In this document: positions 29,700-49,367 of the stretch, one piece after another
Layout: the number at the start of each line of letters is the position of its first letter
Position numbering within the stretch: the first letter of the stretch is position 1
Assembly (NCBI RefSeq): GCF_004122095.1
Contig: NZ_SAWZ01000001.1
Coordinates: 372,001-436,000 of the forward strand
From: Pseudoxanthomonas composti
GTDB lineage: Bacteria > Pseudomonadota > Gammaproteobacteria > Xanthomonadales > Xanthomonadaceae
Length of the DNA: 64,000 nt
Direction of reading: 5' to 3'
Notes under the pieces: model-generated
What the model saw: the letters and a program-made list of their open reading frames with translations, nothing else
What the model was told of the DNA's origin: nothing
Databases searched by the model: none
Position numbers and translations under genes: made by a program

Positions 29700-29970
29700 G
29701 ACCGGCTCTCCTGCCGGCAGGGATGGAGAAACGCGAGGCGCGTGCGTATCGCAATCGTGCGATGGCGATGGTCGGGCTGGCGTTGACCGCGTCGAAGCAT
29801 GCTGTGGGAGCGGCTCGATTCTGACGAAGACAATTTGCTCCACGCACTGTTGCGCCCGCGGCGTCCTGCCTGACCTCCCGTGACCACCGCCCGCCAGCCA
29901 GCCGGCCGGCCGTTGCACGCACCAGGGTCGAGCGCTTCGTTTGCCGAAGCCCAAAGCCAACCGCAGCGGG

Positions 29971-30080
29971 CCTGGCCCTGAGCCGGAGATAGCGAAACGC
30001 AGGCCAGGGATGGCCTGCGCCGGCGAGTCAGCCATGGATGGCTGACCGAGCCTGGGAGCCATCTCCGGCTCAGGGTCAGG
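29971..30080 (+). repeat. 110-bp structured repeat, copy 1 (candidate RNA element)
   Basis: The 538 bp between the DUF4105 and CorA genes hold no gene I can support but contain this element. A 20-bp outer stem (29971-29990 with 30061-30080, one G-U) encloses hairpin A (29998-30005 with 30012-30019, loop AGGGAT) and hairpin B (30027-30033 with 30040-30046, loop ATGGAT). Copy 2 at 38106-38215 on the other strand can be aligned without gaps, with 89 of 110 positions equal by hand count. All 12 differences in the outer stem keep pairing. Similarity continues for about 50 bp downstream. The motif TGTGGGAGCGG at about 29804 recurs near 37880. Confidence 0.8.
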
Positions 30081-30237
30081 CGGGTTGGCGAAGTCGGCTT
30101 TTCGCGACCCTTCGCATCGCGCCGGAGGACTTCACCGCCTCGCGCGTCGGCGAAGAGGCTTGGAACTGTCTTGGCTACAGACGCGCACCGGCGTGCCGCG
30201 CTTGTCCGTTCACGGGGGCTGGCGCAGGATGCGCGGC

Positions 30238-37753: not shown

Positions 37754-38105
37754 CTGCAGGCTCCGCAAGACGATCGGGAAAGCCGCCGATGGTAGGCCGC
37801 GGCCCGGATCGGGGCAAAGGCCTGAAGTCACAGGCCAACGTACGAGCCCATCAGACGCGGTGCGCGTTCAAGTCTCTTGTGGGAGCGGATTCATCCGCGA
37901 AGAGGCTTGCCCCGGGGCACTACGGGCTGAGTGCCTGAGCATTTCACGGCGGGGTTCGCCTGAAAGTCGATCTGCTGCGGATCACCTCCCTGGCGGCGCG
38001 GAACCGCTCTGTCGACCATGTGACAGGTACCTCGCCGAAATGAGGAACGGTGAGAACTCCCCGAGGCGATCTGGATGGTCGCAAAAAGCTGGCTCCGCTA
38101 CTTAG
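37754..38105. other. Upstream region of the S9 peptidase with a REP-like palindrome
   Basis: This stretch holds no gene. At about 37877-37906 it carries the sequence TTGTGGGAGCGGATTCATCC, whose core GCGGATTCATCCGC is palindromic. This looks like the dispersed REP elements of pseudomonads and xanthomonads; a shortened version of its first half lies near 29804. The part 38030-38105 is the 3' flank of structured repeat copy 2. Confidence 0.4.
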
Positions 38106-38215
38106 CCCGGGCCCGAGCCGGGCATGGCTCCTCGGCTCGGTCAGCCATCCATGGCTGACTCGCCGCCGCGGGCCATCCTTGGCCCGCTTTCCGCCATACC
38201 CGACTCGGGCCCGGG
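38106..38215 (-). repeat. 110-bp structured repeat, copy 2 (candidate RNA element)
   Basis: Read on the minus strand it aligns with 29971-30080 over its whole length with no gap. The outer stem pairs 38215-38196 with 38125-38106; hairpin A is 38187-38168 (loop AAGGAT on the minus strand) and hairpin B 38159-38140 (loop ATGGAT). A 32-bp stretch around hairpin B is identical in both copies. The element lies between the OPT gene and the S9 peptidase gene, both on the minus strand, so a read-through transcript would carry it in its folded sense. Confidence 0.8.
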
Positions 38216-38440
38216 CTCGCGACCTGATGGTTTTGGACTGCTTCCAAGAAAGCATCTCGCCTGAGGCGTGCAGCGTCGAGCCGGCGGTGGGTAGCTGCGG
38301 CAAGCGAGACAGTGAGCCAAGCGCCTGGATGCCCTGACCGAGGGAAGAGCGGCCACCGCCCTCCGGATGCTGCCGCTCCGAAGCCGCGATCCCCACACGC
38401 CTCGCGCCTCTCTCCCGTCTTCACGAAGAAGCGCCACAAA

Positions 38441-38466
38441 AAAGGGCGACCCGCGGGCCGCCCTTT
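38441..38466 (-). terminator. Terminator of the OPT transporter gene
   Basis: On the minus strand AAAGGGCG (38466-38459) pairs with CGCCCTTT (38448-38441) and is followed by more T. The inner part has a second palindrome (CCCGCGGG). It lies 30 bp after the OPT stop. Confidence 0.7.
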
Positions 38467-48476: not shown

Positions 48477-49367
48477 ATGCGTGTGTTCGTCACTGGCGCC
48501 ACCGGCTTCATCGGCTCGGCCGTCGTGGACAACCTGCTCGCCGCAGGCCATCAGGTGCTCGGCCTGGCCCGCACCGACGCGGCCGCGGCGCAGCTGGCCG
48601 AACGCGGCGCTGCCGCGCACCACGGCAGCCTGCAGGACCTGGGCAGCCTGCAAGCCGGCGCCGATGCCTGCGATGGCGTGATCCATACCGCTTTCATCCA
48701 CGACTTCGGGGACTACCAGGCCAACTGCGAGATCGACCGCCATGCCATCGCCGCGATGGCCCAGGCGCTGCGGGGCTCGGCGCGCCGGCTGGTGGTGACC
48801 TCCGGCACCATCGTCGCAGGCGGCAAGGTGGCCCTGGAAAGCCAGGCCGCGCCGCAGACCGGCGCAGTGCCACGGGCGGCATCGGAGGCCGCCGCGGCCC
48901 AGGCGGTGGCCGAGGGCGCCGATGTGGTGCTGGTGCGCCTGCCACCCTCGGTCCACGATGCGGGCGACCACGGCTTCGTGCCGCACCTGATCCGGCTGGC
49001 GCGCGAGCGCGGGGTTTCGGCGTACATCGGCGATGGCTTCAACCGGTGGCCGGCGGTGCATCGCCGCGATGCGGCGGCGTTGTTCCGCCTGGCGCTGGAA
49101 CGCGGCCAGCGCGGCGCGCGCTACCACGGCGCCGCCGACAGCGGCGTGCCCTTCCGCGATATCGCCAGCCTGATCGGCCGGCATCTGCAGGTGCCGGTCA
49201 AGGCGCTGCAGGACGATGCGGTGCACGGGCACTTCGGCTGGTTCGCGCACTTCGCCGGGGTCGACAATCCCTGCTCCAGCACCTGGACGCGCGCGCAGCT
49301 GGGCTGGCAACCCACCCATCCCGGCCTGCTTACCGATCTGGACCAGCCGCACTACTTCCAGGATTGA
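48477..49367 (+). CDS. Extended SDR (NAD(P)-dependent epimerase-like) oxidoreductase
   Basis: The 296-residue protein begins MRVFVTGATGFIGSAVVDNLLAAGH with the extended-SDR motif TGATGFIG. It has GVIHTAFIHDFG and VVTSGTIVAGGKVA. No YxxxK signature is seen: the corresponding region reads PRAASEAAAAQAV, as in a known subgroup of annotated SDRs near such regulators. The C-terminal half has DGFNRWPAVHRRDAAALFRLALE. The substrate is unknown; a role in handling a small toxic or foreign compound would suit the adjacent regulator. Confidence 0.88.
   Translation: MRVFVTGATGFIGSAVVDNLLAAGHQVLGLARTDAAAAQLAERGAAAHHGSLQDLGSLQAGADACDGVIHTAFIHDFGDYQANCEIDRHAIAAMAQALRGSARRLVVTSGTIVAGGKVALESQAAPQTGAVPRAASEAAAAQAVAEGADVVLVRLPPSVHDAGDHGFVPHLIRLARERGVSAYIGDGFNRWPAVHRRDAAALFRLALERGQRGARYHGAADSGVPFRDIASLIGRHLQVPVKALQDDAVHGHFGWFAHFAGVDNPCSSTWTRAQLGWQPTHPGLLTDLDQPHYFQD

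What the first reader, a model, noticed from the sequence alone, without database searches (positions are those of the whole stretch)
29971..30080. A 110-bp repeat whose two copies show compensatory changes along a 20-bp stem
Copies at 29971-30080 (+) and 38106-38215 (-) align without gaps; I count 21 differences. Twelve fall in the two arms of the outer stem and all keep pairing. Four pairs change on both sides between Watson-Crick pairs (T-A to C-G at stem pairs 3 and 9, C-G to G-C at pair 6, A-T to G-C at pair 17). Pair 18 changes G-C to U-G, and pairs 5 and 13 exchange G-C and G-U. Hairpin A has a further double change. Tolerance of G-U suggests that the folded RNA is under selection. I do not know a described family with this shape (long stem closing two short hairpins with GGAT loops) in Xanthomonadaceae.
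Basis: seen in the sequence. Interest (0 to 1): 0.8.

Follow-up and report, generated by a model that had tools for sequence, protein, structure and literature searches.

The report
Scattered repeats that mimic CsrA-binding RNA
A short DNA repeat scattered between genes of Xanthomonas-like bacteria looks as if it is selected as a folded RNA with two docking loops for the global regulator CsrA, so some genomes may carry dozens of scattered CsrA binding sites.

Summary
The two copies belong to an interspersed family: 24 places in the 4.33-Mb genome, matches in 73 of 247 genomes of the family, but in only 5 of 38 of the genus. The outer stem differs in sequence between lineages yet stays paired: 36 of 39 pairs show double changes; covariation score 0.687 against 0.181 in shuffles. 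G-U pairs far outnumber A-C mismatches in most sets, so one strand is folded, most likely RNA. The fixed part of 47 chosen units is C-A-N-GGA-N-G in the hairpin loops, the published CsrA/RsmA site. A model with those loops masked still finds units with GGA in 77 of 79 recognised hairpins. Units often form outward-reading pairs, are intergenic, prefer convergent genes and often lie a near-constant distance beyond intrinsic terminators. Best reading: a probably mobile repeat carrying a two-site RNA docking module for one CsrA dimer, perhaps a distributed decoy. CsrA binding, transcription and titration are inferred, not shown. No Rfam family matches; nine paper searches listed no description.

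The parts
29971..30080 (+). Unit, copy 1: outer stem closing two hairpins (model match 29969-30082)
   Evidence: (R2 112.2 bits)
38106..38215 (-). Unit, copy 2 (model match 38104-38217)
   Evidence: (R2 119.7 bits)
29999..30018 (+). Copy 1 hairpin A, loop CAGGGATG, GGA at 30008-30010
   Evidence: sequence and GGA positions; loop statistics
30027..30046 (+). Copy 1 hairpin B, loop CATGGATG, GGA at 30036-30038
   Evidence: sequence and GGA positions
38168..38187 (-). Copy 2 hairpin A, loop CAAGGATG
   Evidence: sequence
38140..38159 (-). Copy 2 hairpin B, loop CATGGATG
   Evidence: sequence
38274..38374 (+). Degraded inverted partner unit (U) of copy 2, on the opposite strand
   Evidence: weak: R2 14.5 bits, E 0.64 in the whole window; alignment of U units
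38014..38404 (-). Whole repeat around copy 2 as far as it aligns with other copies (partner unit, spacer, unit, 3' flank)
   Evidence: blastn among loci; single alignments reach different ends
29852..30153 (+). Whole repeat around copy 1 as far as it aligns with other copies; its upstream partner is degraded
   Evidence: single alignments reach different ends
38438..38465 (-). Intrinsic terminator of the OPT gene; its T tract ends 223 bases before the core of copy 2
   Evidence: sequence

Best explanation
Each 110-base unit is a folded RNA module. A long stem of free sequence clamps two hairpins whose loops are CsrA/RsmA sites (ANGGAN on a C-G pair), 25 nucleotides apart between the GGAs in both window copies, so one CsrA dimer could grip both. 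The module is carried by a small interspersed, probably mobile repeat, often as two inverted units reading outwards, and often set beside intrinsic terminators. In paired copies read-through from either side makes one sense unit. Shown here: family, covariation, strand asymmetry, loop motif, context. Inferred: transcription, CsrA binding, and the effect, most likely that many copies together act as a distributed decoy that lowers free CsrA, or that they mark single read-through transcripts for CsrA.
For: Covariation: 36 of 39 pairs with double changes, 93.7% of 1812 cells paired, score 0.687 against 0.181 in shuffles. Strand asymmetry in the outer stem, G-U: A-C: other mismatch: 36:1:15 (21 own cores); 27:6:18 for 12 of 15 own inverted partner units read on their own strand; 110:6:59 (56 of 58 hits in relatives, one copy counted twice); 99:4:38 (39 of 40 units found by the loop-masked model). 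Motif: in 47 chosen units (2 window copies and 45 of 58 hits) the only columns fixed in all are loop C, G, G, A of hairpin A, loop C, A, G, G, A, G of hairpin B, and one G elsewhere. Over 81 units without that choice, 150 of 168 recognised hairpins have GGA. With the loops masked in the model, 77 of 79 recognised hairpins still have GGA (both in 37 of 40 units). The published high-affinity site is an ANGGAX hexaloop on a C-G closed stem, with a weaker form lacking N; both forms occur. CsrA bridges sites 10-63 nt apart, optimum over 18. csrA is in the genome and in 240 of 247 family genomes.
Against: No expression or binding data. No sigma-70-like promoter in either window region. Terminator-like hairpins stand between gene and repeat at 31 of 58 gene ends, so read-through may be low. 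Very stable hairpins were suggested to be unfavourable for CsrA in SELEX work, and most of these hairpins have stems of about 8 pairs. G017 stems show little asymmetry (15:8:22 in 24 of 27 units). In the short inner hairpins of the own copies G-U and A-C are equal (3:3) and in the partner hairpin 3:2. 33 of 38 genomes of the same genus have no match, so the element is not essential. Some own copies have lost GGA in one or both loops. The 13 hits left out of the 47-unit alignment include irregular ones.
Confidence: 0.72

Rival explanations
1. A DNA-level palindrome: arms are kept alike by hairpin or template-switch correction, or the repeat works as single-stranded DNA or cruciform for a transposase or nucleoid protein, as proposed for REP elements.
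For: Arms are near-perfect and free in sequence. G017 units show little G-U excess (15:8), and the inner hairpins of own copies none (3:3). Copies are interspersed and patchy.
Against: In the outer stem G-U far exceeds A-C on the loop-GGA strand, and in the inverted partner on its own, opposite strand. A strand-blind process gives equal numbers; a strand-specific single-stranded DNA is not excluded by this. The fixed CANGGANG with variable N matches the site of an RNA-binding protein.
Confidence: 0.12
2. A transcript-end element: the long hairpin blocks exonucleases, antisense read-through or Rho at gene ends, and the GGA loops are incidental or serve another protein.
For: Convergent gene pairs are preferred (19 of 41 merged loci against 53 of 346 neighbouring pairs); 0 of 24 and 0 of 27 units overlap a called gene; terminators sit next to many repeats.
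Against: Such a role does not need a fixed loop motif, two inner hairpins, or a G-U tolerant strand.
Confidence: 0.12
3. A decayed relic: the repeat was once a CsrA-antagonist sRNA gene spread by duplication and is now mostly neutral.
For: Own copies with lost GGA and degraded partner units exist.
Against: Matches recur in 21 of 54 genera, and most examined copies keep both loops.
Confidence: 0.04

Closest known systems
CsrB/CsrC and RsmX/RsmY/RsmZ sRNAs that sequester CsrA/RsmA
   Same: Hairpins with ANGGAN or N-less A-GGA-N loops on C-G closed stems, several sites in one RNA (passages of PMC4005645, and of PMC7652899).
   Different: Those are sRNA genes with many sites in one RNA. Here two sites are clamped by a long stem, in tens of scattered copies, and no promoter was recognised. 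No Rfam hit.
RsmU of Xanthomonas (PMC7694677)
   Same: Same family of bacteria; a 3' UTR-derived RNA with GGA motifs that binds RsmA (passages).
   Different: From the mRNA of one gene (ComEA), reported only in Xanthomonas; its sequence was not compared here.
REP/BIME repeats with GTAG or CGTC tags (Di Nocera 2013, PMC3733652)
   Same: Intergenic palindromes, often as inverted dimers with spacers mostly of 20-100 bp, mainly between convergent or co-directional genes (abstract and section 14).
   Different: REPs are 20-40 bp with a GTAG or CGTC end; these units are 110 bp, branched, with fixed GGA loops and no such conserved tag.
Predicted 3' UTR sRNAs with GGA repeats in Vibrio fischeri (PMC5568370)
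   Same: A prediction of repeat-bearing 3' UTR RNAs with several GGA loops (passages).
   Different: Different organism; not called an interspersed family in the passages I saw.

Membership tests
CsrA/RsmA-sequestering sRNA (CsrB, RsmX/Y/Z) | Several ANGGAN loops on C-G closed hairpins | tested here: met
   against the rule; two per unit
CsrA/RsmA-sequestering sRNA (CsrB, RsmX/Y/Z) | Match to an Rfam family of that clan | tested here: not met
   0 matches; RsmW only 15.3 bits against a gathering score of 52
CsrA/RsmA-sequestering sRNA (CsrB, RsmX/Y/Z) | Independent gene with its own promoter and terminator | tested here: inconclusive
   no promoter-like site in either region; the only terminator-like site is the one next to the OPT gene; the scans know only the E. 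coli-type consensus
CsrA/RsmA-sequestering sRNA (CsrB, RsmX/Y/Z) | Binds CsrA and titrates it | not testable with these tools
   needs EMSA, CLIP and reporters
GTAG/CGTC REP elements | 20-40 bp palindrome with a GTAG or CGTC end | tested here: not met
   110-base branched unit, no such conserved tag in the aligned columns
RsmU | Homologous sequence in the 3' UTR of the comEA homologue | not tested
   only passages of the paper were seen

The most novel reading that the evidence does not exclude
A terminator-targeting mobile element family has spread ready-made bivalent CsrA docking RNAs through Lysobacteraceae and some other Gammaproteobacteria. Its copy number, not a dedicated sRNA gene, would set CsrA titration in genomes with 20 to more than 50 copies.
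Probability: 0.3. Interest if true: 0.92.

Novelty: new variant of a known kind. Interest (0 to 1): 0.78.

Why it matters
CsrA/RsmA controls virulence, motility and secondary metabolism. The RsmU paper reports no significant homologue of the classical antagonist sRNAs in Xanthomonas genomes (passages). A repeat family offering two CsrA-type loops per unit in tens of copies would be a new way to tune a global regulator, by copy number, and would show a mobile repeat that evolves as a protein-binding RNA. It is directly testable with one EMSA and one strand-specific RNA-seq.

Tried and rejected
Rfam matches at relaxed E-value are mostly microRNA models plus weak fits, all far below their gathering scores; rejected. 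An empty site at the CorA gene failed: in none of the 29 relatives' loci fetched (about 1.5 kb flanks) was the Lnb-like neighbour gene found. An orthologous convergent site in another genus has the unit in one species; in eight others both flanks were found and R2 found no unit; two further loci did not span the site in my cut. The intergenic DNA is too scrambled to show a target duplication. A first gene caller locked onto antisense shadow frames and was replaced. A REP control for G-U against A-C had only 4 copies (3:3), uninformative. CsrA presence could not be correlated with the repeat because CsrA is nearly universal. Phage and plasmid records and viral contigs (exact 31-mer only) gave no match.

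A unidirectional mutation bias was considered for the G-U excess; the inverted partner shows the excess on the opposite strand, which speaks against it. That count uses 12 of 15 partner units; with all 15 it is 36 G-U, 13 A-C, 45 other. Terminator control: shuffled gene-end sequences gave 6 of 58 (with repeat) and 1 of 114 (without), and the window as a whole 5 of 27 ends, its repeat-facing ends included.

Full report
OBSERVATION. The same genome holds 24 copies by blastn and by a covariance model R1 made from 21 of them (the other 19 of 43 R1 matches lie antisense on the same places). R2, built from diverse units, finds 31 places: the 24, five inverted partners and two further places.

WHAT IT IS. 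The conserved DNA is longer than 110 bases: about 300 bases around copy 1 and 390 around copy 2 align with one or another copy. Upstream of the core there is often an inverted, diverged partner unit (U), with a long stem and a GGA hairpin on the opposite strand; I could align 15 of the 24 own upstream regions, 12 of them well, and R2 recognises 5 as units, with spacers of 57-58 bases. In the family loci examined, 23 of 23 adjacent pairs read outwards, 18 of them with spacers of 57-111 bases and 5 with 156-903 (the L054 and L056 partners are weak hits, E 0.069 and 0.088). In an overlapping set picked by eye from the cut listing for four genomes of the genus, 23 of 26 neighbouring pairs read outwards; the other three are in this genome, where copies lie in tandem. 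Three of three pairs outside the family read inwards. Many units have no recognised partner: in 20 regions of G017 there are 27 units, 6 pairs among them.

DISTRIBUTION. R1: 73 of 247 family genomes, 21 of 54 genera, with only 15 candidates scored per genome, so copy numbers there are minima. R2 within the genus: 5 of 38 genomes, with 55, 43, 31, 21 and 1 matches. R2 in the class: 13 of 369 genomes, 11 of them outside the family; 356 had none. The ten best alignments of those outside hits show two hairpins with GGA loops inside a long stem, with some mismatched pairs, in units of 0.50-0.72 G+C. Named carriers of the exact hairpin-B 31-mer: Luteimonas suaedae, L. abyssi, L. saliphila, Luteimonas sp. 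FCS-9 and RC10, Lysobacter spongiicola, Pseudoxanthomonas wuyuanensis and Lysobacteraceae bacterium NML93-0399 (13 stretches).

RNA-LEVEL SELECTION. In 47 chosen units (A3) 36 of 39 pairs have changes on both sides; 0 of 500 shuffles reach any of the five measures, and sliding the partners drops the covariation score from 0.687 to at most 0.133. G-U against A-C separates a folded strand from a strand-blind palindrome. Outer stem: own cores 36:1 in 21 copies, relatives 110:6 in 56 of 58 hits, one copy (L058, L066) counted twice, new units from the loop-masked model 99:4 in 39 of 40. Own partner units, read on their own strand, 27:6 in 12 of 15 (36:13 in all 15). G017 is weaker, 15:8 in 24 of 27 units, its stems being almost all Watson-Crick. 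The short inner hairpins of own copies show no excess (3:3; partner hairpin 3:2). Counts are cells, not independent events. A strand-specific single-stranded DNA is not excluded by this test alone.

THE MOTIF. Of all columns of A3 only C, G, G, A (hairpin A), C, A, G, G, A, G (hairpin B) and one other G are fixed in 47 of 47; the A before and the T after the first GGA are 46 of 47, and the N position is free or missing. This is the ANGGAX hexaloop on a C-G pair, or its N-less five-base form, of Csr/Rsm proteins (passages of PMC4005645; SELEX consensus RUACARGGAUGU and bridging range in passages of PMC7652899). A3 leaves out 13 of 58 hits; without that choice 150 of 168 recognised hairpins in 81 units have GGA. 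To remove circularity I masked both loops and rebuilt the model (R3). It matches 89 of 395 family genomes. Of 40 units that I took from 24 of those genomes, some of them the named species, 37 have GGA in both loops, 2 in one of two, and in 1 only one hairpin was recognised, with GGA. These were among the best-scoring matches. The GGAs are 25 nucleotides apart in both window copies.

CONTEXT. Genes were called with a codon-usage script of my own. Own genome: 24 of 24 units intergenic; 10 convergent, 7 same-sense, 5 antisense, 1 divergent, 1 at a contig end. G017 (20 regions fetched, of 43 matches): 27 of 27 units intergenic; 10 convergent, 6 antisense, 4 same-sense, 1 divergent of 21 loci. Convergent sites are enriched (19 of 41 merged loci against 53 of 346 gene pairs in the same regions, Fisher p 1.4e-5); divergent sites are fewer, not significantly (2 of 41, p 0.06). 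Gene ends facing a repeat have an intrinsic-terminator-like hairpin in 14 of 28 (own) and 17 of 30 (G017), against 6 of 69 and 2 of 45 ends without a repeat and with a gap of at least 100 (the window as a whole gives 5 of 27). The T tract ends 223-233 bases from the core on its 5' side in 6 of 8 first-in-line own copies (the others 195 and 184), and 71-80 on the 3' side in 4 of 7 (the others 123, 142, 143). In G017 10 of 17 T tracts lie 51-76 bases from the nearest recognised unit edge. I read this as a site preference for terminators or for their T side; that is inference. Copy 1 lies between an Lnb-like gene and corA, copy 2 between an OPT transporter gene and an S9 peptidase gene, each downstream of the first-named.

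MECHANISM. A CsrA dimer has two sites and the unit offers two loops within bridging range. The stem sequence is free, so its job is probably shape: it brings the hairpins together and may guard the RNA or feed RNase III (recalled for other repeats, not tested). In outward-reading pairs, read-through from either side makes one sense unit. The likeliest effect is a distributed decoy; local marking of read-through RNA is the alternative. Neither is shown.

NOVELTY. Rfam has no match. Paper searches (open PMC papers only; I saw the 4-15 listed of each) showed no description of interspersed repeats with CsrA sites; subscription papers are not covered. RsmU (passages) is the closest functional relative in these bacteria, REP dimers (abstract and one section) the closest repeats.

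Noticed in passing
G000 contig C1 47934-48043 (-), locus L049: A diverged copy of the unit lies about 680 bases downstream of csrA (48722-48877, same strand), with a tRNA-Ser between; not checked in relatives.
   Followed up: partly
window 38438-38465 and own/G017 loci: Many repeats stand at a near-constant distance from intrinsic terminator T tracts, which suggests terminator-directed insertion by an unknown mobiliser.
   Followed up: partly
L097, L104, L109 (other families of the class): Related units in other Gammaproteobacteria are paired facing inwards, with 154-223 base spacers, unlike the outward pairs of Lysobacteraceae (three pairs only).
   Followed up: no
L004, L005, L006 (own genome): Tandem copies with start-to-start distances of 418, 419 and 229 bases (from the coordinates).
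   Followed up: no
window 29800-29830 and 37874-37930: A separate short repeat with GTGGGAGCGG (REP-like) near both copies.
   Followed up: no
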